NCBI RefSeq assembly: GCF_030813715.1
Contig: NZ_JAUSUZ010000001.1
Span: forward strand, 7,068,001-7,132,000
Source: Catenuloplanes indicus
GTDB lineage: Bacteria; Actinomycetota; Actinomycetes; Mycobacteriales; Micromonosporaceae
Length of the DNA: 64,000 nt
Direction: 5' to 3'
Shown here: piece after piece, positions 5,662 through 53,568 of the stretch
Layout: the number at the start of each line of letters is the position of its first letter
How positions within the stretch are numbered: position 1 is the first letter of the stretch
Program-made: the position numbers and the translations under genes
Notes under the pieces: model-generated
Told to the model about the DNA's origin: nothing
Databases searched by the model: none
The model's input: only the letters and a program-made list of their open reading frames with translations

Positions 5662-5970
5662 AGCTTTGGATATTCCCGCTTCCGGCGTGGCCGCTGGGGC
5701 TCCTGCGGGCTCCGGTCGCGTCGTGGTCACCGAAACCCCGCTGTCGTCTTTCGGATAGCGGGGGCGCGCGGGTGCAACCCGGCGGCGGCCGGAGCCGTCT
5801 AGTGGCTGTGGAGCCGGTGAGGGCCACCCTTCGTGACGCACGGTGAGCATTGCCGTTCTGACCGCAGTGTGGCCGTTCGTCTGGTTGATATCCCTCCCGG
5901 GCCACCGTTTCATGTGTTCCTGGGTGGAACGACAAAGGGACGGATCCGGATTTATCCGGTGGGGGACGGA
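5662..5970. other. 309-bp non-coding stretch before the deacetylase gene
   Basis: Contains copy A of the dispersed 3' repeat at 5673-5718 and a small hairpin with 7-bp arms (5736-5742 with 5757-5763). The deacetylase frame extends upstream to 5833, but that part lacks a ribosome binding site and a protein-like composition, so I treat it as leader. No other element is recognised. Confidence 0.5.
5673..5718 (+). repeat. dispersed 3'-flank repeat, copy A
   Basis: Matches the family core: TTCCCGCTTCCGGCGTGGCC, a variable middle, then TCCTGCGGGC and a CCGGTCG end. It starts 11 nt after the stop codon of the alpha/beta hydrolase and reads in the same direction. The CCCGC and GCGGG ends can pair. 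The GCATGC centre seen in copies B, D and E is missing, so this is a shortened version. Confidence 0.75.
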
Positions 5971-6810
5971 GTGCAGCCCGCGATGACGAGGTGGACGATC
6001 GGCGCCCGGCACATCGCGATCATCGCCACGGTACTGGCCGTGATGCTGATCGCGAGCCTGCTCGTGGTGGCGAGGGTGACGTCCGGCAACTACGGAGCGT
6101 CAGCTTCGCCGTACCGGCCGAACCCACGCGCCGCGAGCACGCCGGAGCCGGGCGGCCAGGCCGCGTCCGCGGCACGCGGGCCGATGCGCGCGGAACCGCC
6201 GACCCGGCAGCGCGCGTACGACGGGCCGGAGGGCACCCAGCGCGTCACCGGCACGCCGTCGATGAGCCTCACGTTCGACGACGGCCCGTCCCAGTACACC
6301 GACGAGGTGCTGGACCTGTTGGACAAGCACGGCATCAAGGCCACGTTCTGCGTGATCGGCAGCCAGGTGCGGTCGCATGCGGCCCAGATGCGCCGGATCG
6401 TCGCCGAGGGACACACGCTCTGCAACCACACCTGGAATCACGACTTCCAGCTGGCCGAGCGCACGCCGGAGCAGATCGTCAAGGACCTGGTGCGGACGAA
6501 CGACGCGATCCACACGGTCGTACCGAACGCGAAGGTGCACTACTTCCGCAACCCGGGCGGCAACTTCAACCACCGTACGGTGTCGGTCGCGCAGAACCTC
6601 GGCATGGTGCCGCTGCACTGGAGCATCGACTCGCGCGACTGGGAGACCAAGGACGCGAAGAAGATCTGCGACCTGGTCGAGGCGAACGCGCACCCGGGCG
6701 CGGTGGTGCTGCTGCACGACGGCGGCGGCGACCGGCGCGAGACGACGAAGGCGCTGAAGAAGCTGCTGCCGTTCCTGAAGGCGCGGTACGACCTGGTGGC
6801 GATGCCATAG
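5971..6810 (+). CDS. polysaccharide deacetylase (NodB domain, CE4), membrane-anchored
   Basis: A 279-residue protein. GTG 5971 is preferred because GGGGGACGGA sits directly upstream; ATG 5983 is in frame but too far from that site. A single hydrophobic helix at about residues 14-36 anchors the protein, followed by a Pro/Ala-rich linker. The NodB domain shows motif 1 TFDDGP (catalytic base and metal-binding Asp), motif 2 HTWNHD (metal-binding histidines), motif 3 RNPGGNFN in place of the commoner RPPYG, and motif 5 LLHDGGGDR. It probably removes acetyl groups from peptidoglycan or chitin-like glycans outside the membrane. A bidirectional hairpin follows the stop. Confidence 0.88.
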   Translation: MQPAMTRWTIGARHIAIIATVLAVMLIASLLVVARVTSGNYGASASPYRPNPRAASTPEPGGQAASAARGPMRAEPPTRQRAYDGPEGTQRVTGTPSMSLTFDDGPSQYTDEVLDLLDKHGIKATFCVIGSQVRSHAAQMRRIVAEGHTLCNHTWNHDFQLAERTPEQIVKDLVRTNDAIHTVVPNAKVHYFRNPGGNFNHRTVSVAQNLGMVPLHWSIDSRDWETKDAKKICDLVEANAHPGAVVLLHDGGGDRRETTKALKKLLPFLKARYDLVAMP

Positions 6811-6839
6811 GTGCGGCCGCCCCGCCGGACGGCCGCACC
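6810..6839. terminator. bidirectional hairpin between convergent genes
   Basis: Perfect 10-bp arms (GGTGCGGCCG with CGGCCGCACC) and a 10-nt loop, in the 35-bp gap between the deacetylase stop and the convergent osmC stop. No T-run, as is usual in high-GC actinomycetes. Confidence 0.6.
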
Positions 6840-6845
6840 CGCGGA

Positions 6846-7262
6846 TCAGACGAGCTTGGCGTCGACCGTCTGCGGCACGGCGCCGAGCGCGGCCGAGATC
6901 GGGCAGCCGGCCTTCGCGGTCTCCACGTGGGCCGCGAAGGCGTCAGCGTCGATGTTCGGCACCGACGCCTCCACGGTCAGCGCGATACCGGTGATCTTCG
7001 GGCCGTCGCCGAGCGTGACGGCGGCGGAGGTGCGCACCGAGTCGGCCTTGAAGCCGGCACCGGCGAGCACGTTCGCCAGGAACATGGAGAAGCAGCCGGC
7101 GTGCGCGGCCGCGACCAGCTCCTCCGGGTTGGTCCCGGATCCGTCCTCGAAGCGGGAGACGAACGTGTACGGGCCCTCGAAGACGCCGGAGCCGAGCGCG
7201 ACGGTGCCGGCACCGCCCTTGAGGTCGCCGTTCCAGACAGCGGATGAGGTACGAGTTGGCAT
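6846..7262 (-). CDS. osmC: OsmC family peroxiredoxin
   Basis: A 138-residue protein, typical OsmC length (E. coli OsmC is about 143). The two redox cysteines are visible in AHAGCFSMF near residue 57 and in KAGCPISAAL near residue 119; in the family they reduce organic hydroperoxides by a thiol mechanism. The N-terminal NPEELVAAAHAGC arrangement is diagnostic. The start is ATG 7262 on the minus strand without a strong ribosome binding site. Convergent with the deacetylase and divergent from the universal stress protein, so the 141-bp gap up to 7404 likely carries stress-responsive promoters for both. Confidence 0.9.
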   Translation of the reverse strand: MPTRTSSAVWNGDLKGGAGTVALGSGVFEGPYTFVSRFEDGSGTNPEELVAAAHAGCFSMFLANVLAGAGFKADSVRTSAAVTLGDGPKITGIALTVEASVPNIDADAFAAHVETAKAGCPISAALGAVPQTVDAKLV

Positions 7263-7403
7263 ACCGGTGATTCTGCCCGGACCGCCCGCCGCTGCCCAGA
7301 CCGCCCCATGCTCGGCAATATCCGCGTTCGGTGGTGCGGCGGTCGCATCCGGGTGTAGAGCAAGCAGGTAAGGGGTCCCGCCCGGGGCCGAAGGAGGCGG
7401 GTC

Positions 7404-8300
7404 ATGTCCGGAATCGTCGTCGGAGTCGATGGATCGCCCGGGGCGGAGACGGCCGTACGCTGGGCCGCCGCCCGATCCCGGGCCAACGGCGCGCCGCTGC
7501 GGCTGATCCACGCCTACTCGCTGCCGGTGCCGTACCCGGCGTCGCCGTTCGGCCCGGCCGGCGACGTCACCGGCGACGCGGGCGCGTACGCGAAGGCCGC
7601 CGAGGCGGTGCTGACCGGCGCGGCCCGGGTCGCGGCCGAGGCCGGTGCCGCCGCGGTGAGCACGGAAGCGCTGGCCGGCGGCGCGTCCGGCGTGCTGATC
7701 GAGGCCTCGGACGGCGCCGGCCTGGTCGTGGTCGGCTCCCGCGGCCTCGGCGGCTTCACCGGTCTGCTGCTCGGCTCGGTCGGTGTGCAGGTCTCCGCGC
7801 ACGCGAAGTGCCCGGCCGTGGTGGTCCGCGAGCCGGCCACGCCCGGCGGCCCGGTGGTGGCCGGAGTGGACGGGTCCGCGCCGTCGCACGCGGCCGTGCT
7901 GTTCGCGTTCGCGGAGGCGGAACGGCTCGGCGCCGAGCTGATCGCGGTGCACGCGTGGGGCCTGCCGACGCCGGTCGACCCGGCGCTGATGGCGTTCCCC
8001 ACCGCGCAGGACCGCGACGACTACGTGACCGCGGCCGGCCAGGTGCTGCACGACGCGCTGACCGAGGGCCGGTCCCGGCACCCGTCCGTCCGGGTCCGCG
8101 AGCTCGCGGTGGAGCGCGGCGCGTCCGCCGGCCTGCTGGAGATCGCGGAACACGCCGCGCTGGTCGTGGTCGGTTCCCGCGGCCACGGCGGTTTCGCCGG
8201 GCTGCTGCTCGGCTCCACCAGCCAGTACGTGCTGCACCACGCGCACTGCCCGGTGGCGGTGCTGCGCGCGGACGTGGACCCGGAACCGTCGGAAGCCTGA
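7404..8300 (+). CDS. tandem universal stress protein (two UspA domains)
   Basis: A 298-residue cytoplasmic protein made of two Usp domains (about 1-143 and 150-290). Each begins with a VGVDGS strand and carries the ATP-binding GSRGxGGFxGLLLGS motif (near residues 111 and 253). This is the class related to mycobacterial dormancy proteins such as Rv2623. GGAGGCGGGTC precedes the ATG. It lies next to osmC, consistent with a general stress role. The exact regulator is not evident from the sequence. Confidence 0.9.
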   Translation: MSGIVVGVDGSPGAETAVRWAAARSRANGAPLRLIHAYSLPVPYPASPFGPAGDVTGDAGAYAKAAEAVLTGAARVAAEAGAAAVSTEALAGGASGVLIEASDGAGLVVVGSRGLGGFTGLLLGSVGVQVSAHAKCPAVVVREPATPGGPVVAGVDGSAPSHAAVLFAFAEAERLGAELIAVHAWGLPTPVDPALMAFPTAQDRDDYVTAAGQVLHDALTEGRSRHPSVRVRELAVERGASAGLLEIAEHAALVVVGSRGHGGFAGLLLGSTSQYVLHHAHCPVAVLRADVDPEPSEA

Positions 8301-8386
8301 CTCGGCACCGTCATTGCCGCGTATAAGTTTGTCGATACGTTGACTTCCCGGGGCCCGAGGTGCGGGTCCCGGGGAGGACGAGACCC

Positions 8387-9394
8387 GTGTTACGCAGAAC
8401 CGTGATCACGGCGGCAGCCGTCCTCGCCGTCGTCCTCGGCGTGCAGGGCGGCGCGGAGGCGGCCCCGGCGCCCGGCGTGCCCGGCGCCGGTGACAGCTAC
8501 TATCCCGACTACGGCAACGGGGGTTACGACGTCGGTCACTACGACATCCGGTTGCGCTACCACCCGCAGACCGACCGGTTGACCGGCACCACCACGATCC
8601 TGGCCACCGCCACCCAGGACCTGTCCGCGTTCAACCTGGACTTCGCGCTGCGGACCACGTCCGTGCGGGTCGGCAGCCGGCCGGCCACGTTCGCCCGGGA
8701 GGGCGACCACGAACTGGTCGTCACGCCGGCCCGCCCGCTCCTGGCCGGCCAGAGCACCACGATCGTGGTGACGTACGACGACGTGCCGTCCTCGGTGGTC
8801 GCGGCCGGCTACACCGCGTGGAACCGCACACCGGACGGCGCGCTCGCGGTCGGCCAGCCGGAGAGCGCCTGGTGGTGGTACCCGGGCAACGACCACCCGA
8901 CGGACAAGGTGACCTTCGACGTGTCCGTGCTGGTGCCGTCCGGCGTGGAGGCGATCTCCAACGGCTCGCCGACCAGGTGGGCGCAGCCGGAGCTGCGCGG
9001 CTGGGACCGCTGGTCCTGGCGATCGGCCGCACCGCAGGCCACCTACCTGGCGTTCCTGGCGATAGGCGACTTCGACACGTACGGCGACGAGACGCCGGAC
9101 GGCCAGCCGGTCATCACGGCGTACAGCACGCGCCTGGACGACGTCAGCGCCGCGGCCGCCCGCAGCAGCATCGAGCGGACCAGGGAGATCCTCGACTGGC
9201 AGGCCGGCCTGTTCGGCCCGTACCCGTTCGGCCCGCGGGGCGGCGTGGTCAGCGGACCACGTGACCTGGGCTTCGGCCTCGGGGCGGTGCCGCCGGGATC
9301 GGGCACGCCGGGAGCGGAGTGCGCTATTCCCTTATCTTCGCCAGGAAACCCGCGACGTGCGACAGCATCCGCGCGATCTTGTCCTCCTCGCTGA
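8387..9394 (+). pseudogene. M1 family aminopeptidase, truncated before the zinc site
   Basis: GTG 8387 is preceded by GGGGAGG at the right distance and opens a signal peptide (about residues 1-28). The next 270 residues match the N-terminal beta domain of secreted M1 peptidases: a DVGHYDIRLRY start, the TATQDLSAFNLDF region, SAWWWYPGNDHPTDK, and LFGPYPFGPRGGVVSG, which in intact enzymes leads into the catalytic domain. Homology stops near nucleotide 9290. There is no GAMEN-like segment, no HEXXH and no C-terminal half; the frame runs another 30 or so codons antisense to the next gene and ends at 9394. I read this as a remnant left by a deletion that joined it to the FBP gene. A secreted inactive fragment remains possible. 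Confidence 0.75.
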
Positions 9395-9815: not shown

Positions 9816-9828
9816 GCGGACGACGCTA

Positions 9829-9853: not shown

Positions 9854-9865
9854 CAATAATGGGGT

Positions 9866-23534: not shown

Positions 23535-23628
23535 GCGGACGCCAGTACCCCTTTTCCGGTTTCTTAGCACGTACCGGGTTCTCGGGTGACCCACGGCGCA
23601 ACCGGCAGGGAGGCCCCTCGGGCCGGCC

Positions 23629-23674
23629 GCTGCCCGCGGGAGCATGCGGGCAGCACCCCCGCCGGAAGCGGGAA
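23629..23674 (-). repeat. dispersed 3'-flank repeat, copy E
   Basis: On the minus strand reads TTCCCGCTTCCGGCG, variable middle, then CCGCATGCTCCCGCGGGC. It begins 12 nt after the stop of the SpoIIE-type phosphatase in the same orientation. A second block shared with copy C (GGCCTCCCTGCCGGTT) follows at 23598-23615, extending the element to about 85 nt. Confidence 0.8.
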
Positions 23675-23686
23675 AGTCCTTTGTTC

Positions 23687-25846
23687 CTAAGGGTTTTCGC
23701 GGTCCTCGGAGAGCAGGATCTCGAACCACACCGTGGAGCCGCGGACCGTCGGGTCGGTGCCCCAGGCGTCGCTGAGTTCCTCGATCAGGCCAAGACCGCG
23801 GCCGCGGCTGCTGAGCGTGTCGGTGTGCGCGCGGGTCACCGTGCCGCGCGTGCCACTGTCCTGAACGGAGACGAGCAGCCGCTCGGGCGTCAGGTCGATG
23901 TGCACGCGTGCGGCGGTGCCGGCGTGCAGCAGCGCGTTCGTGGTCAGCTCGCTGGTGCAGAGCACGGCCGCCCCGATCACCGCCTCCGGCACGTCCCACG
24001 CGGAGAGCTGCACCTTCATCCACTGCCGGACGCGCCCCGGCATGGTCGGCTCGGGTGGCACGTTCATCGTCGCGGACCGGCTGGGCGTGCTGGCGTACTC
24101 GACCGCGAGCACGGCCACGTCGTCCTCGGTGGCACCCGCGACCGCGGACGTGGCCAGCGCGCACAGGTTGCGCGGGTCGCCGCTGACCGCCTCCGCCACC
24201 GACTTCGCCAGCGCGGCCAGGCCGTCGTCCAGCTCGCGCCGGCGGCGCTCGATCACGCCGTCGCTGAAGAGCAGGATCGTGTCGCCGGGCGAGAGCGCCG
24301 TCGTCATCGCGCGGTGCGCGCCACCCAGGCCGAGCGGGGTGCCGGTCGGTACGTCCAGGTAGCCGACCGTCGCGAGTTGTCCCTCCGCGCTGGCGTGCCG
24401 GATCAGCGGTGCCGGATGACCGGCGGACGCGATCGTCAGCCCACCGTCCCGCTGGTCAAGCAGGCCGTAGGCGACCGTGACGAACAGCTCGTGCGAGCGG
24501 GTGCCGGTGCCGAGCATGCCGACCAGCTTGTCCAGCCCGTCCAGCACCACCACCGGGTCCGGGTTGGCCAGCGCGAGCGCGCGCAGCGCGGCCCGGACCT
24601 GGCCCATCAGCGCGGCCGCGTGCATATCGTGCCCGGCCACGTCGCCGAGCACGATCGCCAGCCGGCCCTCGGGCAGCACGAACGCGTCGTAGAAGTCACC
24701 GCCGGCCGCGCTGCCGTCGATGCCCGGGTCGTACCGTGCGGCGACCCGGAACCGGTCCAGGTTCGGCAGGTGCTCCGGCAGCATGCTGCGCTGCAGCAGC
24801 TGCGCGGTGCCGTGCTGGGTCTCGAACCGGCGGGCGCGCTCCGCGGCCTGGCCGATCAGGTCCGCGGCCGCGGTCAGCTGCGCACGCTCCGCCGGCAGCC
24901 ACAGGTGCGCGTGCCGGCGGCCGAACGTCAGCGCGCCGCGCAGCGAATGCGTGCTCAGCGGGATCGCGGCCATCGCGCGCTGCCGCTGGTCGTGCCGGTC
25001 CGCCGCCACCTCGCGCAGCGGCGTGCCGTCCTCGGTGAACGCGGCCGTGCCGGACCCGGCCGCCTTCGCCAGCGGACTCGGCGAGTCCAGCGGGAGCCGG
25101 CGCCACAGCGGGGGCAGCCGCTCGTCCGCCTCGTCCAGCAGCTCGCCGCGCACCCGGCGGACCACCCGCCACCCGCTCGCGTCGTCCACGCCGAACGTCA
25201 TGTGGTCGACGTCGAACGCGCTCAACCCGTACCGCAGCGCGACCCGGGCCACGTCGTCCAGCGTGACCGCGCCGGCCAGCGCGCCGGTCAGCTCGCCCAG
25301 GCTCTGCAGCCGGCTGGTCGCCTCGGTGGTCTCGGTCGCGACCGTGAGCACGCCGATCGTGCGGCCCTGGGAGTCCCGGACCACGGAACAGCCGCGCGTG
25401 AAGACCGCCTGCTCCGGCTCGCCGGCTGGCGAGCGGACCAGCGCGACCGCGGTCTCCGCCTCGCGGAACGGCTCGCCGGTGCGGTAGACGCGGTCGACCA
25501 CGTCGCCGACGCCGGGCGTCGCCCACGCCTCCTCGAACACGTCCGCGGCCGGGCGGCCGAACGCGGCCGGATGCTTGCCGCCGAGGATCGTCGCGAACGC
25601 GTCGTTGTAGATCAGCGTGTACGCGTCGCCGTACGCCAGTGACATCGCCACCGGCGAGCCCATGATGAGCTCGATCGTGGCGCGCAGCGCCGGGTCCCAG
25701 CCGCCCGGCACGCCGAGCGGCGTGGTGTGCCACGGATGGCTCGCCAGCAGACCGGCGGCCGTCCGATGGGCAGGGTCCTCCTCCACCTGGCCCCCGGCTT
25801 GCGCCGTTGGGGAGGCGGAGACTGCCCGGACGACCGCGCGTGCCAT
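23687..25846 (-). CDS. PAS-GAF-SpoIIE phosphatase with C-terminal anti-sigma-type ATPase
   Basis: About 719 residues from ATG 25846; a start at 25927 in the same frame is possible, and neither has a clear ribosome binding site. Order: PAS (about 35-170, including LIYNDAFATILGGKHP), GAF (about 180-345), PP2C-type SpoIIE phosphatase (about 355-570, with metal-binding AAGGDFYDAF, LGDVAGHDMHAAA, LLFSDGVIERR, ATEDDVAVL), then an RsbW-like HATPase (about 590-710, SELTTNALLHAG and SRGRGLGLIEEL). Such proteins combine phosphatase and kinase for an STAS anti-anti-sigma factor and control a sigma-factor partner switch. No STAS gene is in the window. Divergent from the repetitive protein gene at 26052. 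Confidence 0.9.
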   Translation of the reverse strand: MARAVVRAVSASPTAQAGGQVEEDPAHRTAAGLLASHPWHTTPLGVPGGWDPALRATIELIMGSPVAMSLAYGDAYTLIYNDAFATILGGKHPAAFGRPAADVFEEAWATPGVGDVVDRVYRTGEPFREAETAVALVRSPAGEPEQAVFTRGCSVVRDSQGRTIGVLTVATETTEATSRLQSLGELTGALAGAVTLDDVARVALRYGLSAFDVDHMTFGVDDASGWRVVRRVRGELLDEADERLPPLWRRLPLDSPSPLAKAAGSGTAAFTEDGTPLREVAADRHDQRQRAMAAIPLSTHSLRGALTFGRRHAHLWLPAERAQLTAAADLIGQAAERARRFETQHGTAQLLQRSMLPEHLPNLDRFRVAARYDPGIDGSAAGGDFYDAFVLPEGRLAIVLGDVAGHDMHAAALMGQVRAALRALALANPDPVVVLDGLDKLVGMLGTGTRSHELFVTVAYGLLDQRDGGLTIASAGHPAPLIRHASAEGQLATVGYLDVPTGTPLGLGGAHRAMTTALSPGDTILLFSDGVIERRRRELDDGLAALAKSVAEAVSGDPRNLCALATSAVAGATEDDVAVLAVEYASTPSRSATMNVPPEPTMPGRVRQWMKVQLSAWDVPEAVIGAAVLCTSELTTNALLHAGTAARVHIDLTPERLLVSVQDSGTRGTVTRAHTDTLSSRGRGLGLIEELSDAWGTDPTVRGSTVWFEILLSEDRENP

Positions 25847-26051: not shown

Positions 26052-28637
26052 GTGACCGACGTGGGGCCTGAGGCGAGTTCCGACATCCGCAGGCCCGCCG
26101 GCGTCCTCGACTTCGTGGCCGCACTGCAACAGCTCGACGAGTCCATCGTCGGGAATGCCGTTTTCCACATTTCCCGCCGTAATGCGACGCTGCCGCCGGT
26201 GTCGCCGGGAGAAGGGGAGGGTGTGCGGATTCCGGAATCCGGCGTGCCTGGCGGCATGCGGGGGGAATCGCATTCTTCGGATGTCGGGTTTATGTCAGCT
26301 AAGTCATTACTGTCGGTAGTTGACGTAGAGGCGTCGGGTTCCCAGCGTGTGGAACCGGCGGTACCGGCTGCGTCGGTGTCTTCCGGTGCGGCCGGCGCCT
26401 CGGCCGCTGCGGTCGCCTCGGTGGCTGCGGTCGCCTCGGTGGCTGCGGTTGCCTCGGTGGCTGCGGTTGCCTCGTCGGCTGCGGCTGCCTCGGGTGATGC
26501 GGACGCGTCCGCTACTGGGGCTGACTCGGCGGCCTCGGACGGTCCACCCGTCTCGGGTGCTTTGCCTGCCGCGGTTTCCGGAATGCCGCGGGATGCGGTG
26601 GCCGCTGCGGTGGCGCGCGCCTCGACCATGGCCGCATCACCAGGCCTTCAGGGCGAACTCGCCGGAACGCCCCGGGCGGAGACGCGCATTCCAGCGTTTC
26701 GGGCGGCGCGGTCCGTGCCGGGCGTGCCGGTGACCCCGGCGGCGGGACCCGCCGGTCGCGATCGCCGGGAACCGCTGCCAGCGCTCGGAACTCGTGATGG
26801 TGGCAGGCACGTTCCGGACCCCGGCAGGTCCGGCACGCCGGATGAGACCTCCGCCGGCGGGAAATCCCGCGGCGAGCTATTGGCCGGACCGTCGGCGGAG
26901 CCGACGGATGGAGACGAGACAGCGGCCCCGGGGGCGGCCGCGGCAGCACCGGTCGCGGACGCGGCCGTAGGCACGGCGCCGGGGACCGGCGGCGGACAGG
27001 ACGCGACGTTCGCCGAAGGGGGCGCAACAGTGCTTGCGAACAGTGAGAACGACACGCAGGCGGGCCAGGACGCGACGGCGTCCCCGGCCGGGAATGGCAT
27101 CACACCACAGCACCCGGCCGAGCCGGACGGGAGCCCGGCTCCGGAGTCCGCCGGGATCGCGCCCGCGGAATCGCCCGCGCACGCTGCGGGAGCTTCGCCC
27201 GCGGGACCGCAGGCGTCCCCGCCCGTGAAATCGGATGAGGCTCCCACGGCGCCCGGTGCCGCGGCCCCCGTTGAACCTGAGCCGGAATCCGGTGAGACGA
27301 CGCAGCCTGCCGGGCCTGAGGCTGATGCGGGAGCAGGCGGTGGCCCCGCCCGGTCTGAGGCCGGCACGGGTCCGGGCGATGGTGCCGCTGCGCCCGAGGC
27401 TGGCGTGGCCCCCGAGGCCGACGCCGATGCCGGACCTTGGGATGAGGCTGAAGTACCAGGTCAAGAGGCAGCCGGCGGGGGAGCGGAGACCGCACCGGCC
27501 GCGGAAGCCGGGACCGCGCCGGTAGCCGACGACGCCTTCGAGGAGGATGCGTCGGAACGGACCGGGGAGATCATCGTTCTGCTGTCGGCCGGCGAGGACG
27601 AGGCCGACCGTACCGGCGAGATCGTGCTTCTGGCCCCCGCCGCCGGCGCGGTCACCGCGGTCACCGGTGCGAATCCGGAGCTGCGCGCGAGCGCGCACGA
27701 GGAGACACTCGCGCTACGCGCGGCGGTGGACCCGTGGAGCGGCTCCGAGGATTCGGACGTGACTCTCCACCTCGCCGTACCCCTGAAGGCCTCGGCTCCG
27801 CGGGCGGAGATTGCGGCGGTCCCGGCTTCGCACCCGGAGGCTGCGGCGAGGGCGGTTCTCCAGCCCGAGACTGCCGCCGGCTCGGCTCCGCACGCGGAGG
27901 CTGCCGCGATCCCGGCTTCGCCGGCCGGAGCTGCGGCGAGTGCGGTTCCCGACCCGGAGGCCGCCGCCGGCTCCACCTCGCACGCGGAGGCTGCGGCGAG
28001 TGCGGTTCGCCACCCGGAGACCGACGCGGGCGCGGCTTCCCACGCCGGGGCTGCCGCCGGCCCGGATTCGCACGGGGAGACCGCCGGGACCCCGGCTGCG
28101 CACCCGGAGACGTCCGTGACCACGCATCCGCACCCCGGGATCGCGGCAGGCGCGGCACCACGCCCGGAGAGCCCGGCGGCCCCGGCCGGCTCTCCGGACT
28201 CCGATCCCGGGTCGCACCCGGCCGCGGATCCGCACGCCGCCGTGACCAGGGTGACCGGGTCGTACCCGGTGCTGAGCGGCGCCCGTCCGCCGGTGCGGCC
28301 GGAGGTGGTCAACGAGGTCTCCGGCGGCTATCCGGTGATCAATTCGAGCCTGACCGGCGGATCAGGCGCCTACCTGTCGCTGAACGGCAACGCGGCCGCG
28401 TACGCCGCGCTGAACCGTGCCTCCGGCGCCTACCCGGCCGTGCCGGACCCGGATGAGCGGGCCGTGGGAGCCGCCCGGGTCGTCGGGCCGCCGCGGCGGT
28501 TCGTGGGGTCGGCGCAGCCGGAGATCTCGGCGGAGCAGGCGCCGCGGCGGCGGAGTGACGTCTGGGTCGCGGTGCTGCTGGTGGCCGTGGCGGCGGTGGT
28601 GATCCTGGGCGTCGCCTACGCGATCGCGGTGAGCTGA
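26052..28637 (+). CDS. repetitive Ala/Pro-rich tail-anchored protein, uncharacterised
   Basis: 861 residues from GTG 26052; the frame is open upstream to 25920 but that part is not protein-like. I do not recognise the family as a whole. Residues about 14-45 (VLDFVAALQQLDES to ATLPPVS) faintly resemble the N-terminal HTH helix of actinomycete XRE-like proteins. Residues 119-148 are five tandem AAVASV units. About 500-530 has two RTGEI-(I/V)-LL segments in an acidic context. Residues 584-713 are thirteen decapeptides of the type HPEAAAGxAx. Residues about 733-796 hold five spaced units of the type SGxYPVLN. A single hydrophobic helix at about 836-858 ends the protein with no signal peptide, so most of the chain should be cytoplasmic. 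A perfect hairpin follows the stop. Confidence 0.75.
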   Translation: MTDVGPEASSDIRRPAGVLDFVAALQQLDESIVGNAVFHISRRNATLPPVSPGEGEGVRIPESGVPGGMRGESHSSDVGFMSAKSLLSVVDVEASGSQRVEPAVPAASVSSGAAGASAAAVASVAAVASVAAVASVAAVASSAAAASGDADASATGADSAASDGPPVSGALPAAVSGMPRDAVAAAVARASTMAASPGLQGELAGTPRAETRIPAFRAARSVPGVPVTPAAGPAGRDRREPLPALGTRDGGRHVPDPGRSGTPDETSAGGKSRGELLAGPSAEPTDGDETAAPGAAAAAPVADAAVGTAPGTGGGQDATFAEGGATVLANSENDTQAGQDATASPAGNGITPQHPAEPDGSPAPESAGIAPAESPAHAAGASPAGPQASPPVKSDEAPTAPGAAAPVEPEPESGETTQPAGPEADAGAGGGPARSEAGTGPGDGAAAPEAGVAPEADADAGPWDEAEVPGQEAAGGGAETAPAAEAGTAPVADDAFEEDASERTGEIIVLLSAGEDEADRTGEIVLLAPAAGAVTAVTGANPELRASAHEETLALRAAVDPWSGSEDSDVTLHLAVPLKASAPRAEIAAVPASHPEAAARAVLQPETAAGSAPHAEAAAIPASPAGAAASAVPDPEAAAGSTSHAEAAASAVRHPETDAGAASHAGAAAGPDSHGETAGTPAAHPETSVTTHPHPGIAAGAAPRPESPAAPAGSPDSDPGSHPAADPHAAVTRVTGSYPVLSGARPPVRPEVVNEVSGGYPVINSSLTGGSGAYLSLNGNAAAYAALNRASGAYPAVPDPDERAVGAARVVGPPRRFVGSAQPEISAEQAPRRRSDVWVAVLLVAVAAVVILGVAYAIAVS
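26406..26495 (+). repeat. five tandem 18-nt units inside the repetitive protein gene
   Basis: Units of GCTGCGGTCGCCTCGGTG at 26406, 26424, 26442, 26460 and 26478, with the first two identical, the third differing by one base, and the last two diverging. They encode AAVASV. Near-identity at DNA level suggests recent expansion by slippage. Confidence 0.9.
27801..28190 (+). repeat. thirteen tandem 30-nt units encoding decapeptides
   Basis: Every 30 nt from 27801 the frame restarts with a His/Pro/Arg-(Pro/Ala)-Glu-type motif: for example RAEIAAVPAS, HPEAAARAVL, QPETAAGSAP, HAEAAAIPAS, DPEAAAGSTS, HAEAAASAVR, HPETDAGAAS. Thirteen units fit without gaps up to 28190. Units are diverged, so the array is older than the 18-nt array. 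Confidence 0.88.
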
Positions 28638-35798: not shown

Positions 35799-36365
35799 GG
35801 ACGGCGGCCGGTGGGGGCGGTGGCCGATGGCCGCGGCGGCTGCCACCGGCGCCAACGCCGGTGGCGGTGGCGGGCGGTGCCGGTGCCGGTGGAGGTCGGC
35901 GAGGGTGGCGACGGGCAGCGGGCGGCAACGGCCGGTAGCGGCGACGGTTCGGCAGCGTCGGCCGGCGGCGGTGAGCCGGCAACGGCAACAGCCGCTAGCG
36001 GCGAGGTTCGGCGGCGGCCAATGGCGGCGAGTGGGCAGCGGCCGGTGGCGGCGACGGTTCGGCGGCAGAGGCCGCCGGCGGCGACGGCTGACAGCGGCGA
36101 TGGCTGCCGGTGGCGATGGCATCCGGCGGCGACGGCCGCCGGCGGCGACGGTTTGGGCGCCGCGATCGGCGGCGGTCAGTGGCGGGGAGCCGGCCAGCGG
36201 CAACGGCCGCTAGCGGCGATGGTTTGGCGGCGGCCAGTGGCGGCGAGTGGGTAGCGGCGACGGTTCGGCGGCCGCGTTCGGCGACGGCCGCCGGCGTCGA
36301 CGGTCCAGCAGCGGTGGCCAGCGGCGATAGGGCCGGCCGGGGCACCGGCCGGTAGGGCGGCGGCC
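35799..36365. repeat. GC-only imperfect repeat tract, non-coding
   Basis: About 565 bp built from recurring GGCGGCGACGG, GCGGCGACGGTTCGGCGGC and GCAACGGCCGCTAGCGGCGA words. The plus strand is G-biased, A/T occur mostly at fixed places within the words, and several frames are open only because stop codons are rare. A direct repeat of about 90 bp is visible: 35969-36070 against 36184-36274, both with GAGCCGGC, GCCGCTAGCGGCGA and GTGGGCAGCGG/GTGGGTAGCGG in order. I see no gene in it. Possibly a degenerated minisatellite, or the remnant of a Gly-rich repeat protein. Confidence 0.65.
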
Positions 36366-40781: not shown

Positions 40782-40819
40782 CGGCGGCGGTCCCTTCCCC
40801 GGGACCGCCGCCGATTTTT
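40782..40819 (+). terminator. rho-independent terminator of the sugar ABC operon
   Basis: Perfect 13-bp arms CGGCGGCGGTCCC/GGGACCGCCGCCG, 6-nt loop, followed by ATTTTTG. 14 nt after the permease stop. Confidence 0.92.
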
Positions 40820-40822
40820 GTT

Positions 40823-40873
40823 TACCCGCTTCCGGCGTGGCCGAGTGCCGCATGCTCCCGCGGGCCCCGGTCG
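40823..40873 (+). repeat. dispersed 3'-flank repeat, copy B
   Basis: ACCCGCTTCCGGCGTGGCCG, GAGTG-type middle, CCGCATGCTCCCGCGGGC and CCGGTCG. Same strand as the sugar permease and directly after its terminator (55 nt after the stop). Confidence 0.85.
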
Positions 40874-40948
40874 TCGCCGGTGCTCCGCCCTGCCCGGTCC
40901 GCGGCCACTTCCGGAAGACCCGGTGGGCGGCGCCGGCGGAGGTGCCGG

Positions 40949-44599: not shown

Positions 44600-44621
44600 G
44601 ATCCAGATCAAGATCTGGATC
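44600..44621. terminator. perfect palindrome at the ends of convergent genes
   Basis: GATCCAGATC-AA-GATCTGGATC, 10-bp arms with a 2-nt centre. It starts right after the glycosyltransferase stop and contains the AraC stop codon (44608-44610), so it can act as a terminator for both. Immediately followed by repeat copy C. Confidence 0.65.
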
Positions 44622-45699
44622 TTCCCGCTTCCGGCGTGGTCGCGTCCCGGTGCTCCCGCGGGCACCGGTCGGCCGCGGGCGGCCTCCCTGCCGGTTCCGT
44701 CGTGGCCGGACCGGACCGGGCCTGCTGCGGAGTGGTACCGGTCCAGGAGCGGAAGGCGCGGTAGAAGGAGCCCGGGTCGTCGTAGCCGAGCAGGAACGCG
44801 ATCTCGGTGACCGAGACGTCCGCGCGGTCCAGGTAGGCGCGGGCGAGCGCGTGCCGGGTGCTGTCGAGCACGGCCTGGAAGGTGGTGTGCTCCGCGGCCA
44901 GGCGGCGTTGCAGCGTGCGGCCGCTCAGCGCCAGGCGGCGGGCGACGCCGGCTGCGGTGCCCGCACCGGCCGGCAGCAGCTCGACCAGCGCGGCCCGGAC
45001 CCGTTCCGCGGTCGACTCGGCGCGCTCCAGATCGGCCAGGCGGCGGCGCAGATCCGGCGCGAAGACCCGCCACATCTCCGCGTTCTCGGTCAGGAACGGG
45101 CGGCGCGCGTCGTGCGCGGCGAAGACCACCTCGGCCTCGGCGCCGTGCTGGAACGGCACGCCGAGAAAGTCGCGCCACGCCTCGGCGACCGCGCCGGCCG
45201 GCGGATCCGGCGTCGAGAACCGGGCCGGCACCACCCGCGCCCGGGTGGCGAGCCGGGCCAGCGCCACCCAGACGGCCAGCTCGTACGCGACCAGGCCGGG
45301 CGGCGGTACCGGCACGGCCGGCCAGCGCATGGTCAGGTGCAGCTCGTCGCCGGGCCCGACGAGCACGCGCTGCGGGCCGATCAGGCGCTTGTGCGCGGCG
45401 ATCCGCTCCGCCGCGCGGCGCAGGTTCGGGCTGCACAGCGCCGCGAAGATCGGCGGGTGGAAGGTCTCCGTGCTCATCCGCTCGGCCGCCCGCACCGGGA
45501 ACGCGGGATCGCCGTAGGCCTCCTCCATCGCGGTCCAGCAGCGGAAGAACTGCTCGGGCGCGAGCGTCACCGGGCCGCGGACGAACAGGTCGCCGGGCAG
45601 CCCCGCGGCCCGCAGCACCGGGCCGGCCGGGATGCCGAGGTCTGCGAACATCACCGCGGCCGCCGGGCTGAGCGCATACCCGGCCGGACTCACCGGCAT
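44608..45699 (-). CDS. AraC family transcriptional regulator
   Basis: 363 residues from ATG 45699, overlapping the SDR stop by 10 bp. N-terminal arabinose-binding-like domain (about 15-210) of the OruR/VqsM type, with AYGDPAFPVRAAERM and LLxPxxL-like layout. C-terminal AraC HTH pair (about 235-330): SGRTLQRRLAAEHTTFQAVLDSTR and VTEIAFLLGYDDPGSFYRAFRSWTG. The last 30 or so residues (Pro/Arg/Ala-rich, ending EAGRSRS) are encoded antisense through repeat copy C and are probably an acquired tail. Likely controls the coupled SDR gene. Confidence 0.88.
   Translation of the reverse strand: MPVSPAGYALSPAAAVMFADLGIPAGPVLRAAGLPGDLFVRGPVTLAPEQFFRCWTAMEEAYGDPAFPVRAAERMSTETFHPPIFAALCSPNLRRAAERIAAHKRLIGPQRVLVGPGDELHLTMRWPAVPVPPPGLVAYELAVWVALARLATRARVVPARFSTPDPPAGAVAEAWRDFLGVPFQHGAEAEVVFAAHDARRPFLTENAEMWRVFAPDLRRRLADLERAESTAERVRAALVELLPAGAGTAAGVARRLALSGRTLQRRLAAEHTTFQAVLDSTRHALARAYLDRADVSVTEIAFLLGYDDPGSFYRAFRSWTGTTPQQARSGPATTEPAGRPPAADRCPREHRDATTPEAGRSRS
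44622..44671 (+). repeat. dispersed 3'-flank repeat, copy C
   Basis: TTCCCGCTTCCGGCGTGG, TCGCG middle, CCGGTGCTCCCGCGGGC and CCGGTCG. It lies 22 nt after the glycosyltransferase stop on the same strand, and continues with the second block GGCCTCCCTGCCGGTT (44683-44700) shared with copy E. Read on the minus strand it encodes the C-terminal tail of the AraC protein. Confidence 0.85.
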
Positions 45700-48048: not shown

Positions 48049-48095
48049 GGTCCGATGATCACCCGCCCGGCGCGGTGGCGCGATCGAATAACGGC

Positions 48096-49052: not shown

Positions 49053-49084
49053 GGGCGGGACGGTGTCGCGGGGGTACGACAGGA

Positions 49085-49771: not shown

Positions 49772-49794
49772 CCTTCGAAGTATGCGTCAACTGA

Positions 49795-50037: not shown

Positions 50038-50061
50038 CGCATCAAGGAATGCGGATGTACG

Positions 50062-51480
50062 TCAGCCGACGGACAGTGAAGGTGATCGATCCTGCCACGG
50101 TGCGGCCTGCTCCAGCTGGGCGGCGAGGCGCAGCAGCAGGTCCTCGCGGGCGTGGCCGGCGGCGAGCTGGACGCCGATCGGCAGGCCGGTGCGGCTCTGG
50201 CCGAGCGGCAGGCTGATCGCGGGCGTGCCGGACACGTTGAACGGCGCGGTGAACGGGCCGTACTCCAGGATCCGGCGCAGCCACCCGCGCGCGTCCTGGC
50301 CCGGGTCGTCGTAGCGCAGCGTGCCGTGCGGTGCGGGCAATTGACCGAGCGTGGGCGTGACCAGCACGTCGTACCGGGTGAAGAACGTGCCGACCGGGTG
50401 GGTGACCCGGTGCTGAGCGTCGAGCATGGTCAGCACGTCCAGCGCGGTCGCGGCCTCGGCCTCGCGGAGGAACGCGCGGGAGACCGCCTCCAGTAGCGAC
50501 GGGTCCGGCCTGCGGCCGCGGCCGCCGCGCAGCACCGCGAGGCCGCTGGCGACGCCGCCCAGCATCAGCGCCTCGATCACGTCCTCGGCGGCGAACTCCG
50601 GGCGGGCCGGTTCGACTCGGTGACCGAGCCATTCGAGCAGCTCGCCGACCGTGGTGGTGGCGTCCGCGACCTCCGGGTCCACGGGTACGCCGGACCACGG
50701 CTCGACGCAGATCGCCACGCGCAGCGGCTCGGGCCGCGCGTCGATCTCGTGCGCGTACGGGCGTACCGGCGGCGGGGTCCGGTGCTTCTCGCCGTGGTGC
50801 GGCGCGCTGATCGCGTCCAGCAGTCGCGCGGCGTCGCGGACCGTGCGGGTGAGCGCGAACTCCTGGACCGCGCCGAAGCCGATCTCGCCCACGGCCGGGC
50901 CGACCGGCAGGCGGCCGCGGGTCGGTTTCAGGCCGACCAGCCCGCACGCGGCGGCCGGTACCCGGATCGAGCCGGCGCCGTCGCTCGCGTGCGCGAGCGG
51001 GACCGCACCGGCCGCGACCAGCGCCGCCGCGCCGCCGCTGGAACCGCCGACGCCCCGGTCCGGTGCCCACGGGTTGCGGGTGGGGCCGTGCAGCACCGGC
51101 TCGGTGGCGAAGCTCAGGCTCCACTCCGGCGCCGTGGTCTGGCCGAGCGTGACCAGGCCGGCCGCACGGAAACGGGCCATCAGTTCGGTGTCGGCGCTCG
51201 CGACCGCGCCCATGATCGCGCGGCTGCCCAGCCGGAACGCGGTGCCGCGGGCGACCGGGCCACTGTCCTTGATCAGGAACGGTACGCCGCCGAACGGGCC
51301 GTCCGGGTCGTGCGTGAGCGCGGGCTCGTAGAGCGGGCCGGTCAGCGCGTTGAGGTCCGCGTGCGCCGCGGCCAGCGCGCGCCGGGCCGCGTCCTCCACC
51401 TCCACCGGCGTGACCTGGCCGGTGGCGATCAGCTCGCGCAGGCCGGTGGCATCGTGGCTCGCGTACTCGTGTACCTCCAT
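50062..51480 (-). CDS. amidase (amidase signature family)
   Basis: 472 residues from ATG 51480 (GTG 51486 two codons earlier is possible). Catalytic Ser-cisSer-Lys triad: Lys in FLIKDSG (near residue 71), cis-Ser in GVGGSSGGAAALVAAG and nucleophile in DGAGSIRVPAAACGLVGLKP. Full length. Substrate not inferable; members hydrolyse aliphatic or aryl amides. Divergent from the ArsR gene. Confidence 0.9.
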   Translation of the reverse strand: MEVHEYASHDATGLRELIATGQVTPVEVEDAARRALAAAHADLNALTGPLYEPALTHDPDGPFGGVPFLIKDSGPVARGTAFRLGSRAIMGAVASADTELMARFRAAGLVTLGQTTAPEWSLSFATEPVLHGPTRNPWAPDRGVGGSSGGAAALVAAGAVPLAHASDGAGSIRVPAAACGLVGLKPTRGRLPVGPAVGEIGFGAVQEFALTRTVRDAARLLDAISAPHHGEKHRTPPPVRPYAHEIDARPEPLRVAICVEPWSGVPVDPEVADATTTVGELLEWLGHRVEPARPEFAAEDVIEALMLGGVASGLAVLRGGRGRRPDPSLLEAVSRAFLREAEAATALDVLTMLDAQHRVTHPVGTFFTRYDVLVTPTLGQLPAPHGTLRYDDPGQDARGWLRRILEYGPFTAPFNVSGTPAISLPLGQSRTGLPIGVQLAAGHAREDLLLRLAAQLEQAAPWQDRSPSLSVG

Positions 51481-51530
51481 GCGCACAGCGTGGCGGCCGG
51501 CGGGCGTACCCGCGATCGGTTTTTTGCTTG

Positions 51531-51550
51531 CTAAAGGTTTCTTTCTAAAG
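51531..51550. promoter_or_regulatory. AT-rich direct repeat in the amidase/arsR divergent region
   Basis: CTAAAG occurs at 51531 and 51545, 14 nt apart, in an AT-rich 83-bp gap that is unusual for this genome. It could be the promoter plus a binding site for the ArsR-like regulator; no perfect dyad is seen. Confidence 0.35.
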
Positions 51551-51563
51551 CATTCTCTAGGGT

Positions 51564-52118
51564 ATGGCCGACTCGATCAGACTCGACGACCCGCGCGCGC
51601 TGCGGGCCTATGCCCATCCGCTGCGCCTCAGCCTCGTCGGGCTGCTGCGCCGGAACGGGCCGATGACCGCGACCCAGTGCGCGGCCGCGCTCGACGAGAA
51701 CGTGCCGAACTGCTCGTTCCACCTGCGCCAGCTCGCCAAGTACGGGCTGGCCGAGCGGGTGCCGGGGGCGGATGCGCGGGAACGGCCGTGGCGCGCCACC
51801 GCGATGGACACGTCCTGGGCCGACGACTCCGACGACCCGGAGATGCGAGCCGCGGCCGACCAGCTGAACGCCGTGATCCTGGGGCGGTACATCCGGCTCG
51901 CCGAGGCCTACCTGGCGACGCGCGCGGAGGAGACGGTCGAGTGGCGGCGGGCGGCCGGCTTCGGCGACTACATGATCTACGTGACCGCGGCGGAGCTGTC
52001 CGCGCTGTCCGAGCGGTTCGACGAGCTGCTCGCGCCGTACGGCGACCGGGAGCGGGCGGCCGACGGTGCGCGGCCGGTCAGCGTGGTGCAGCTCACCATG
52101 CCGCGGGACGAGCCGTGA
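51564..52118 (+). CDS. ArsR-type winged-helix regulator
   Basis: 184 residues, ATG 51564. Winged helix at about 8-85: LRAYAHPLRLSLVGLLRRNGPMTATQCAAALDENVPNCSFHLRQLAKYGLAERV matches ArsR/HTH_20 regulators, with no metal-binding cysteines. The C-terminal helical part likely binds a small molecule. Overlaps the MFS exporter start by 4 bp (GTGA), so it probably regulates that exporter. Confidence 0.88.
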   Translation: MADSIRLDDPRALRAYAHPLRLSLVGLLRRNGPMTATQCAAALDENVPNCSFHLRQLAKYGLAERVPGADARERPWRATAMDTSWADDSDDPEMRAAADQLNAVILGRYIRLAEAYLATRAEETVEWRRAAGFGDYMIYVTAAELSALSERFDELLAPYGDRERAADGARPVSVVQLTMPRDEP

Positions 52119-53371
52119 CCCTCCTGGCCCGGCGCGGCGGGCTGCTGCGCGAACCGATGTTCCGCACGTACTGGTCCGCGCACGTGGTGTCGTTGGTCGG
52201 GGAGCAGATCTCGTACCTCGCGCTGCCGCTGCTGGCCGTGCTCACGGTCGGCGCCGGCCCGGCCGAGATGGGCTACCTGACCGCGGCCGCGCTCCTGCCG
52301 AACCTGCTGTTCTCGCTGGCCGCGGGCGCGTGGGTGGACCGGCGGCCGGCCAAGCGGCACATCATGATCGGGGCGGACCTGGTCCGGGCCGGGCTGCTGC
52401 TGGTCGTGCCGGTGCTCGCGTTCGCCGGGTTACTGCAGCTGTGGCACCTCTACGTGATCGCGTTCCTGACCGGCACGCTCACGCTCCTCTTCGAGGTGGC
52501 CAACAACAGCCTGTTCGCGTCCGTGGTCCCGCGCGCCGACTACATCGGGGCGAACTCGCTGCTCAACGGCGCGCGGGCGATGTCCTACGTGGCCGGGCCG
52601 AGCGCGGGTGGCCTGCTGGTGCAGACGATCACCGCGCCGTTCGCGCTGATCGCGGACGCGGTGTCGTACCTCGGGTCCGCGATCCTGCTGCTCCGGATCC
52701 GGCCGGACGAGAGCGCGGCCGTGTCCACCTCGTCCTCGCCGGAGGAGAGTGGCGTGCTGAGCGGGTTGCGGTACATCGCCCGGTCCGCCGTGCTGCGCTC
52801 GCTGCTGCTCGGCGTGACCGTGCTGAACCTGTTCAACTACGTCTTCCACGCGCTGTTCATCCTGTACGTGACCACCGCGCTCGGGCTCTCCGCGGGGCAG
52901 CTCGGCGTGCTGATCGGCGTCGCCTCGGTCGGCGGCCTGCTGGGCGCCGTGATCACCGGCCCGCTCACCCGCCGCTTCGGCGTCGGCCCGGTCGCGATCG
53001 CCGGATTCGTGGTCTTCCCGCTGCCGCTGGTGCTGGTGCCGCTGGCCGCCGGTGGCGAACCTACGATCATGGCGATGGTCTTCGCGGCCGAGTTCCTCAG
53101 CAGCATCGGTGTGATGATGCTGGACATCACGGTCGGCTCGCTGCAGACCGCTGCGACCCCGCTGACCCGGCTCTCCCTGGTCAGCGGCGCCAAGCGCACG
53201 GTCAACTACGGCGTACGGCCGCTCGGCGCGCTGCTCGGCGGCTTCCTCGGCGAGACGATCGGCATCCACCCGACGATCTGGATCGCCTCGGTCGGCGCGG
53301 TCACCGGCACGCTCTTCGTCCTGTTCTCCCCGATTCGGCGCCTCCGCGAGCTACCGGACCAGCCGGACTGA
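52115..53371 (+). CDS. MFS exporter (EntS/tetracycline-type)
   Basis: 418 residues from GTG 52115, coupled to the ArsR gene. Twelve helices. N-terminal FRTYWSAHVVSLVGEQISYLALPLLA and AAGAWVDRRPAKRHIMIGADLVRA are typical of the EntS/macrolide-type exporter group; the central loop (about 200-225) is Ser-rich. ArsR-MFS pairs usually serve drug or siderophore export. The DHB operon lies 2.7 kb away but is separately controlled. Confidence 0.88.
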   Translation: MTLLARRGGLLREPMFRTYWSAHVVSLVGEQISYLALPLLAVLTVGAGPAEMGYLTAAALLPNLLFSLAAGAWVDRRPAKRHIMIGADLVRAGLLLVVPVLAFAGLLQLWHLYVIAFLTGTLTLLFEVANNSLFASVVPRADYIGANSLLNGARAMSYVAGPSAGGLLVQTITAPFALIADAVSYLGSAILLLRIRPDESAAVSTSSSPEESGVLSGLRYIARSAVLRSLLLGVTVLNLFNYVFHALFILYVTTALGLSAGQLGVLIGVASVGGLLGAVITGPLTRRFGVGPVAIAGFVVFPLPLVLVPLAAGGEPTIMAMVFAAEFLSSIGVMMLDITVGSLQTAATPLTRLSLVSGAKRTVNYGVRPLGALLGGFLGETIGIHPTIWIASVGAVTGTLFVLFSPIRRLRELPDQPD

Positions 53372-53383
53372 CCGCGGGCTCCG

Positions 53384-53404
53384 GCGGCGGTGCGCGACCG
53401 CCGC
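53384..53404 (+). terminator. short hairpin after MFS exporter
   Basis: 8-bp arms GCGGCGGT/ACCGCCGC with a 5-nt loop, 13 nt after the stop. Confidence 0.45.
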
Positions 53405-53520
53405 GCCGCGGCCGGGAGGCGGCGGCGATCGTCGCGGGAGCGTGGTGACCAGCGCCGGAACCGGCTCCGGCCGGCGGACCGGAGCGGAGCGGAGCCAGCG
53501 GAGTCGGAGGGGGAGCCGGA

Positions 53521-53568
53521 GGTCTGCCCGCGGGAGCATGCGGAACGCGGCCACGCCGGGAGCGGGAA
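53521..53568 (-). repeat. dispersed 3'-flank repeat, copy D
   Basis: On the minus strand TTCCCGCTCCCGGCGTGGCC, GCGTT middle, CCGCATGCTCCCGCGGGC. It starts 7 nt after the stop of the 2H phosphoesterase gene in the same orientation. The far block diverges from copies C and E. Confidence 0.85.

What the first reader, a model, noticed from the sequence alone, without database searches (positions are those of the whole stretch)
5673..53568. Dispersed repeat placed just after stop codons, always in gene orientation
Five copies share TTCCCGCTTCCGGCGTGG, a variable 5-10 nt, then CCGCATGCTCCCGCGGGC or a close version: A 5673-5718 (+), B 40823-40873 (+), C 44622-44671 (+), D 53521-53568 (-), E 23629-23674 (-). 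Each lies 7-55 nt after a stop codon and has the same orientation as that gene (hydrolase, sugar permease, glycosyltransferase, 2H phosphoesterase, SpoIIE phosphatase). The CCCGC and GCGGG ends are kept in all copies and can pair. Copies C and E also share a second block, GGCCTCCCTGCCGGTT. Fixed placement and orientation suggest a 3'-UTR element (terminator, RNA-stability element or small-RNA target) or a mobile repeat that inserts at gene ends.
Basis: partly seen in the sequence, partly recalled or inferred. Interest (0 to 1): 0.78.

Follow-up and report, generated by a model that had tools for sequence, protein, structure and literature searches.

The report
Modular repeat at gene 3' ends
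A short hairpin-forming DNA repeat, present in hundreds of copies in soil bacteria of the genus Catenuloplanes and in diverged form in some related genera, sits mostly just behind genes and looks like a mobile element that is tolerated, and perhaps used, as a gene-ending sequence.

Summary
In detail: all five copies are at the stated places, 7-55 nt behind a stop and in gene orientation. The 18-mer core (up to 3 mismatches) occurs 349 times in the 9.25-Mb genome against 23 for its reversed control; a 16-mer (up to 1 mismatch) occurs 213-388 times in each of four congeners. The copies belong to an 80-150-nt modular element: A-rich lead, hairpin head, one of several middle modules, right end near GAAAACCC. 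A covariance model matches in 11 of 44 Micromonosporaceae genera, strongly in five.
Placement is non-random: enriched between convergent genes, nearly absent between divergent ones (0 of 79, 2 of 78); sense copies abut the stop codon. 'Always in gene orientation' fails: in same-direction gaps sense:antisense is 33:25, and two orthologous gaps hold opposite orientations in different species.
Gain and loss between species, species-specific subfamilies and tandem arrays point to a mobile, non-autonomous repeat of the REP/BOX/SPRITE kind. No Y1 (RAYT) transposase was found in five genomes. A terminator or 3'-UTR role is plausible but untested; the mover is unknown.

The parts
5662..5739 (+). Copy A: lead 5662-5672, degenerate head 5673-5710, right end to about 5739 (by eye); 11 nt from stop of gene 4321-5661 to core
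   Evidence: an element is also at the orthologous gap in G004 and G003, none in G001, no ortholog found in G002
40823..40921 (+). Copy B: head plus type-1 module, right end by eye; follows a terminator-like hairpin with T-run at about 40783-40822
   Evidence: an element in G004 and G003, none in G002 and G001
44600..44717 (+). Copy C: lead is a 9-bp hairpin (44600-44621), head, type-1b module; overlaps the 3' end of the antisense ORF 44608-45699
   Evidence: none found at the orthologous place in G004 and G001
53440..53575 (-). Copy D: lead, head, long type-2 hairpin module; 7 nt behind the stop of the minus-strand gene 53576-54115
   Evidence: the same gap in G003 and G001 holds an element in the opposite orientation, G004 has none
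23574..23686 (-). Copy E: lead, head, type-1-like module; 12 nt behind the stop of the SpoIIE-domain gene 23687-25786
   Evidence: an element in the same orientation is at this place in all four other species examined

Best explanation
It is a family of short, non-autonomous, modular hairpin repeats of part of the Micromonosporaceae, amplified to hundreds of copies in Catenuloplanes. New copies appear by an unidentified trans-acting process (inferred). Copies are found almost only behind genes: they are rare in promoter gaps and coding regions, and sense copies that start at the stop codon are over-represented. The likely reason (inferred, not shown) is that the A-rich lead plus GC hairpins form a harmless or useful 3'-UTR end (termination, or protection of the mRNA end) when read in sense. 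So: a mobile repeat that is tolerated, and in part co-opted, as a gene end.
For: Copy number 349 vs 23 control; 16-mer 213-388 in four congeners vs 3-4 control. Context among copies with both neighbours called (79 of 82 own, 78 of 86 C. japonicus): convergent 53 and 44 against 14-15 expected; divergent 0 and 2 against 29-30. Sense copies in gaps of at least 150 nt whose lead starts within 10 nt of the stop: 30 of 56 (null 8.5) and 18 of 58 (null 3.7), 0 of 5000 simulations as high; antisense copies 3 of 11 (null 1.5) and 1 of 13 (null 0.5). The A-rich lead is part of the element: antisense copies have it, 152 other post-stop regions do not show that composition. Turnover: of 142 orthologous-gap comparisons 66 hold an element, 12 of these only in opposite orientation; gaps of 5-50 nt in some relatives hold element-bearing DNA in one species. 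Nearest sequence neighbour in the same species for 152 of 168 copies. Tandem arrays in G001. Type-2 stem: covariation score 0.467 vs 0.153 shuffled and at most 0.186 slid. Of 30 distinct loci outside Catenuloplanes, 22 have the gene in front in sense, 17 of these within 60 nt of its stop (my count).
Against: No insertion was seen cleanly: intergenic DNA between these species is too diverged to show a target duplication or exact ends, and other relatives have long element-free gaps at the same places. No mover found: Y1 transposase 0 of 5 genomes; reverse transcriptase absent in 3 of 5; none of the seven clusters of three or more among 457 neighbour proteins looks like a transposase, judged by eye. 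Folding energies of eight single copies are mostly unremarkable (z -2.67 to -0.17). RNAalifold prefers other structures for the type-2 module and the cross-genus head; two of five pair measures do not exceed shuffles in either alignment. Sense bias in same-direction gaps is not significant (33:25). No T-run follows the hairpins in the right-end profile.
Confidence: 0.6

Rival explanations
1. A host-maintained 3'-UTR RNA element (terminator or stability hairpin) that spreads by recombination between gene ends and selection, not by transposition.
For: Sense copies abut the stop; similar architecture with changed sequence behind genes in other genera; compensatory changes in the type-2 stem; site E carries an element in all five species.
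Against: 25 of 58 copies in same-direction gaps are antisense. Turnover at orthologous gaps, tandem arrays and species-specific subfamilies fit a selfish repeat better. Some genes have a hairpin of their own between stop and element, for example copy B (by eye).
Confidence: 0.2
2. A MITE moved by a DDE-type transposase of an IS still to be found.
For: Short, high copy, intergenic.
Against: No clear terminal inverted repeat by eye: the possible TTTTCC/GGAAAA ends are short and not in every copy. Target duplications could not be determined. No recurrent transposase-like neighbour.
Confidence: 0.1
3. A classical REP/BIME family moved by a RAYT (Y1) transposase.
For: High-copy intergenic palindromes, closely spaced inverted heads (L004, L068, L098), an IS110-family IS that lands in the repeat.
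Against: PF01797: 0 matches in 5 of 5 genus genomes, while 5 of 14 control genomes ring; no GTAG foot seen in the head alignments; the element is longer and multi-hairpin.
Confidence: 0.04
4. A recombination site of a gene-cassette system (attC-like): the element travels with the gene before it.
For: Position right behind stops, mostly gene orientation, a hairpin of variable sequence.
Against: The upstream gene is not new: it has an ortholog in 98 of 105 comparisons for sense copies; where only one neighbour is conserved it is the upstream gene in 20 of 22.
Confidence: 0.02

Closest known systems
SPRITE repeats of Streptococcus pneumoniae (PMC3049150, passages seen)
   Same: Small interspersed repeat, terminator-like, enriched between convergent genes and close to 3' ends; target duplication not established.
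   Different: SPRITE has an 18-bp duplex plus U-rich tract, 30 copies in the genome studied, AT-rich; this one shows no T-run, is GC-rich and modular, has hundreds of copies and relatives in several genera.
BOX elements of Streptococcus pneumoniae (PMC3049150, passages seen)
   Same: Composite of modules with a variable middle; enriched between convergent genes.
   Different: BOX has terminal inverted repeats and target duplications; neither is shown here. Sequences were not compared.
REP/BIME with RAYT (PMC3733652, PMC8266576, passages seen)
   Same: High-copy extragenic palindromes, inverted neighbours, landing site of an IS.
   Different: No Y1 transposase in five genomes, no GTAG foot seen, longer multi-hairpin element.
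CGTC-tagged REPs (PMC3733652, passages seen)
   Same: Palindromic repeats without a dedicated transposase.
   Different: Single palindromes of 20-40 bp, in that paper from five phyla that do not include Actinobacteria. The letters CGTC occur inside the type-1a module here; whether as a foot was not examined.
Insertion of IS elements into REPs (PMC1525189, abstract seen)
   Same: An IS lands at a fixed point of a high-copy repeat.
   Different: Concerns the guest IS, not the repeat itself.

Membership tests
REP/BIME (RAYT-dependent) | Y1 tyrosine transposase (RAYT, PF01797) in the genome | tested here: not met
   0 of 5 genus genomes; 5 of 14 control genomes ring
REP/BIME (RAYT-dependent) | GTAG tetranucleotide at the foot of the palindrome | tested here: not met
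   none seen by eye in head alignments A2 (70 rows) and A4 (32 rows); rows were chosen by the head itself
REP/BIME (RAYT-dependent) | High copy number, mostly intergenic | tested here: met
   349 hits; 2 of 168 sampled copies inside a predicted gene
SPRITE-like terminator repeat | Enriched at convergent gene ends | tested here: met
   53 of 79 and 44 of 78 copies
SPRITE-like terminator repeat | Hairpin followed by a T-rich tract | tested here: not met
   right-end profile (15 own and 39 C. japonicus copies) ends near GAAAACCC without a T-run
BOX-like composite repeat | Common head with an exchangeable middle module | tested here: met
   types T1a, T1b, T2, T3, T4 behind one head; 41 of 168 copies fell in no class
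MITE | Terminal inverted repeats and target-site duplication | tested here: inconclusive
   no clear inverted repeat; junctions in empty-site comparisons too diverged
attC / gene cassette | Element moves together with the gene in front of it | tested here: not met
   upstream gene has an ortholog in 98 of 105 comparisons
attC / gene cassette | attC core-site motifs and an integron integrase | not tested
   recalled features; no search was run
Known Rfam RNA family | Match above the gathering score | tested here: not met
   0 matches for the window and four loci from other genera

The most novel reading that the evidence does not exclude
A mobile element whose insertion is aimed at gene ends: an unknown enzyme, not Y1 and not a reverse transcriptase shared by the genus, places a ready-made multi-hairpin 3' UTR in sense orientation directly at stop codons, sometimes supplying the stop codon itself, across several genera whose copies have kept the fold but changed the sequence.
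Probability: 0.15. Interest if true: 0.85.

Novelty: new variant of a known kind. Interest (0 to 1): 0.5.

Why it matters
My searches turned up no description of this repeat family. It lies behind hundreds of genes in one genus, has relatives in other genera of the family, comes without a Y1 transposase, and prefers the bases right behind the stop codon. If sense copies work as terminators or mRNA-end protectors, a mobile repeat has been recruited as a mass-produced 3' UTR. It is also the landing site of an IS110-family IS; IS110 elements choose targets by an RNA (PMC11187229, PMC11208160, search listing only), so targeting of a high-copy, apparently harmless site becomes directly testable.

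Tried and rejected
RAYT-REP: no PF01797 in five genomes. Retroelement: PF00078 absent in G000, G001 and G004, present in G002 and G003. REPtron-like neighbour gene: 457 neighbour proteins clustered; seven clusters of three or more, of which the three largest look by eye like an ABC ATPase, a short-chain dehydrogenase and a response regulator; none looks like a transposase, no family search was run on them. Gene-cassette idea: rejected by orthology of the upstream gene. 'Restricted to Catenuloplanes', suggested by the 16-mer (0-6 hits in each of 96 other genomes; my notebook says 0-5), was overturned by covariance models. In 200 genomes drawn over the order, which include element-free genera of the same family, only the own genome and one marginal hit (E 5.6e-4) appeared. 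The 152-170-nt insert at ACCGGT is a second repeat, not the mover. Copy C against plasmids and phages: no match; one viral contig holds a head, not followed up.

Caveats on counts. Own copies: 82 distinct, 75 exact and 7 with one mismatch; C. japonicus: 86, 72 exact and 14 with one mismatch. One search lists 76 exact places; two of them (near 9.04 and 9.14 Mb) were not fetched, so the 75 found in fetched DNA is one more than the list accounts for, which I did not resolve. C. japonicus copies come from L042-L120 less six loci of other organisms; L121-L160 were not used. Three own and eight C. japonicus copies lacked a called neighbour on one side and are left out of the context test. Gene calls are from my own codon-usage gene finder. 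Element length was taken as 150 nt in the placement test, which leaves out gaps shorter than that. The gap background comes from the five syntenic stretches. Orthologous-gap comparisons repeat the same sites and are not independent; one search leaves out G002. For the type-2 stem 31 of 44 copies were aligned (short forms left out; 29 distinct rows) and the structure was read off one of them by eye; the cross-genus rows were picked by a model of that structure. Model searches score a limited number of candidates per genome (29 to 150), so counts are lower bounds. In one search, five genera have at least one genome with five or more matches (own, g18, g24, g29, g31); the other six have one to three weak ones, some of which may be chance. 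In one search, L305 and L308 were lost by the HMM, L279 was left out, five loci are duplicates and seven are Catenuloplanes; my 30 excludes those and includes L235, which lies inside a predicted gene and is probably false. TAA/TAG stops are also frequent before distant copies (7 of 17 own, 11 of 32 C. japonicus), which weakens the idea that the lead supplies the stop.
Full report
Observation. The five copies exist at the stated coordinates (5 matches, 0.25 expected). With independent gene calls they lie 11, 55, 22, 7 and 12 nt behind stop codons, in gene orientation; Pfam supports four of the five named neighbours above cut-off. Genome-wide the 18-mer occurs 349 times with up to 3 mismatches, against 23 for the reversed control. 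A 16-mer with up to 1 mismatch gives 225, 215, 379, 388 and 213 hits in the five genus genomes (controls 3-6) and 0-6 in each of the 96 other genomes.

Anatomy. Comparing 82 own and 86 C. japonicus copies shows a larger element. It starts with a 20-25-nt A-rich lead, sometimes itself a small hairpin (perfect stems of 5 or more: 18 of 82 vs 6.0 expected; 11 of 86 vs 5.7). Then come the head TTCCCGCTTCCGGCGTGG..GCTCCCGCGGGC, a middle module of several types (41 of 168 copies fell in no class), and a right part CCGGTTCCGCCGTGGTCACCGAAAACCC. The lead is part of the element: antisense copies have it, 152 other post-stop regions do not show that composition. The type-2 module has a 13-bp stem whose sequence changes while pairing is largely kept: 77.4% of cells paired vs 54.4% shuffled and 33-47% slid; covariation 0.467 vs 0.153 and at most 0.186; two other measures did not exceed the shuffles. 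RNAalifold chose a competing stem, mostly of invariant pairs, over some of the same columns, so two alternative folds are possible. G-U pairs are rare (7 cells), so RNA and single-stranded DNA cannot be told apart.

Placement. Copies with both neighbours called were classed. This genome: 53 convergent, 15 same-direction sense, 11 same-direction antisense, 0 divergent (79). C. japonicus: 44, 18, 14 and 2 (78). Expected from intergenic bases: 14-15 convergent and 29-30 divergent in each. In same-direction gaps the orientation is not significantly biased (33:25, P 0.36), so 'always' is wrong. But sense copies sit at the stop: in gaps of at least 150 nt the lead begins within 10 nt of it in 30 of 56 (null 8.5) and 18 of 58 (null 3.7), while antisense copies are near chance (3 of 11, null 1.5; 1 of 13, null 0.5). 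In convergent gaps the left end is within 10 nt of its stop in 28 of 53 and 15 of 44, the right end in 20 of 53 and 5 of 44. Stops within 60 nt of own copies are TAA/TAG in 25 of 54 against 94 of 325 in the background (P 0.017); at a distance of exactly 9 nt it is 8 of 8, where the stop reads as part of the lead, but distant copies also have many (7 of 17).

Turnover. About 1.08 Mb of syntenic DNA from five species holds 59 copies at 20 bits or more. Of 142 orthologous-gap comparisons 66 hold an element, 54 with a copy in the same orientation and 12 only in the opposite one. Site D is minus in this genome, plus in G003 and G001, absent in G004. Site E has one in all five species. At five sites examined, gaps of 5-50 nt in some relatives correspond to hundreds of bases with the element in one species, while other relatives have long element-free gaps there; the DNA is too diverged to read junctions. 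Two tandem arrays occur in G001, of five and three heads. Nearest sequence neighbours are of the same species for 152 of 168 copies. The gene in front of a sense copy is old (ortholog in 98 of 105 comparisons); where only one neighbour is conserved it is that gene in 20 of 22 (comparisons not independent).

Wider family. A covariance model from 70 heads (R1) found full-length diverged relatives in other genera. A second model (R2) matched at E <= 1e-3 in 28 of 150 Micromonosporaceae genomes, 11 of 44 genera: 12-23 in each of six g18 genomes, 2-39 in six g31 genomes, 5 and 12 in two g29 genomes, 19 in G027 (g24), and only 1-3 in six further genera (39 candidates scored per genome). In 200 genomes drawn over the order only the own genome and one marginal hit appeared. 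Architecture is kept (TTT, outer stem, TCCG, inner stem, CCGnnnGCTCC, outer stem) while stem letters differ; one outer pair is C-G in 17 rows and G-C in 14, though shuffled pairing is almost as high (78.4 vs 74.6%), other measures are weak, and RNAalifold did not recover the stem. Of 30 distinct loci outside Catenuloplanes, 22 have the gene in front in sense, 17 of them within 60 nt of its stop; 4 have an opposite gene in front, 4 are undetermined (my count). Rfam has no match at gathering scores.

Mechanism. Shown: repetition, modular build, 3'-end confinement, sense abutment, turnover, structure in one module. Inferred: mobility through an unknown enzyme, and a role as 3' UTR. Y1 transposase was not found in any of the five genomes, reverse transcriptase not in three, and no transposase-like cluster recurs beside copies. 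Tolerance alone would give 3'-end placement, as argued for pneumococcal repeats (PMC3049150, passages); it does not explain why sense copies in particular hug the stop, which is why I add co-option. Eight folded copies have z-scores from -2.67 to -0.17, so exceptional stability is not shown.

Guest IS. In C. japonicus L113 an IS110-family element (PF01548, E 2.7e-23) lies inside the type-2 loop; this is the only place where both junctions were seen. A left-end pattern without flank finds 4 exact places in the five genomes (reversed control 2, with up to 3 mismatches), all at that same point of the repeat; a fifth with a diverged left end is there too. Its left end holds GTCCGCTGGC, 9 of 10 to the left half of the target (shuffle P 0.028), but nothing for the right half (P 0.99). 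IS insertion into REPs is known (PMC1525189, abstract).

Literature. Searches for Catenuloplanes or Micromonosporaceae with repeat terms and for actinobacterial REPs or small repeats listed no paper whose title or abstract start describes this repeat; only open-licence papers were searchable and the lists were cut. PMC12306157 does not name the genus in its main text (passages).

Verdict. A real, probably undescribed family of small interspersed repeats, best compared with SPRITE and BOX, not a member of RAYT-dependent REPs. Interest is moderate: the kind is known; the stop-hugging sense placement, the retention across genera and the missing mover are not ordinary.

Noticed in passing
L113 = L321 (C. 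japonicus); L320, L322-L328: IS110-family IS inserted at one fixed point in the loop of the repeat's type-2 hairpin; 4 of 4 exact left ends found in the five genomes are there, and a fifth diverged one.
   Followed up: partly
L221, L222, L223, L224 (regions of L003, L006, L007, L192): A second, palindromic repeat of 152-170 nt (CCAATGCCACTCAGCTTA...TAAGCTGAGTGGCATGG) sits inside the element, with ACCGGT or a close version on both sides, within 1-2 kb mosaics of further repeated DNA.
   Followed up: partly
window 44608-44717: The minus-strand ORF 44608-45699 reads into copy C, so roughly its last 36-38 residues come from the repeat and its edge; the G004 homologue ends soon after the shared part.
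   Followed up: partly
window 40783-40822: Copy B follows a terminator-like hairpin with T-run; relatives without the element (G001, G002) have a hairpin there too (by eye).
   Followed up: partly
G001, joined stretch 185632-186017 and 218405-218606: Tandem arrays of five and three heads with periods of 76-89 nt. In this genome L196 also has three cores 24 nt apart.
   Followed up: partly
window 27805-28164 and 35914-36331: GC-rich direct repeats, one with a 30-nt period and one irregular, apparently unrelated to this element.
   Followed up: no
G003:C1, nine RVT_1 matches (L329): G003 carries several reverse-transcriptase genes, three with identical scores; none found in three of its four congeners.
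   Followed up: no
L331 (viral contig IMGVR_UViG_2772190661): One viral-labelled contig holds a head of this repeat; origin not examined.
   Followed up: no
L117 (C. japonicus contig 70, 3.7 kb): A small contig with outward-facing copies near both ends, suggesting assembly breaks at the repeat.
   Followed up: no
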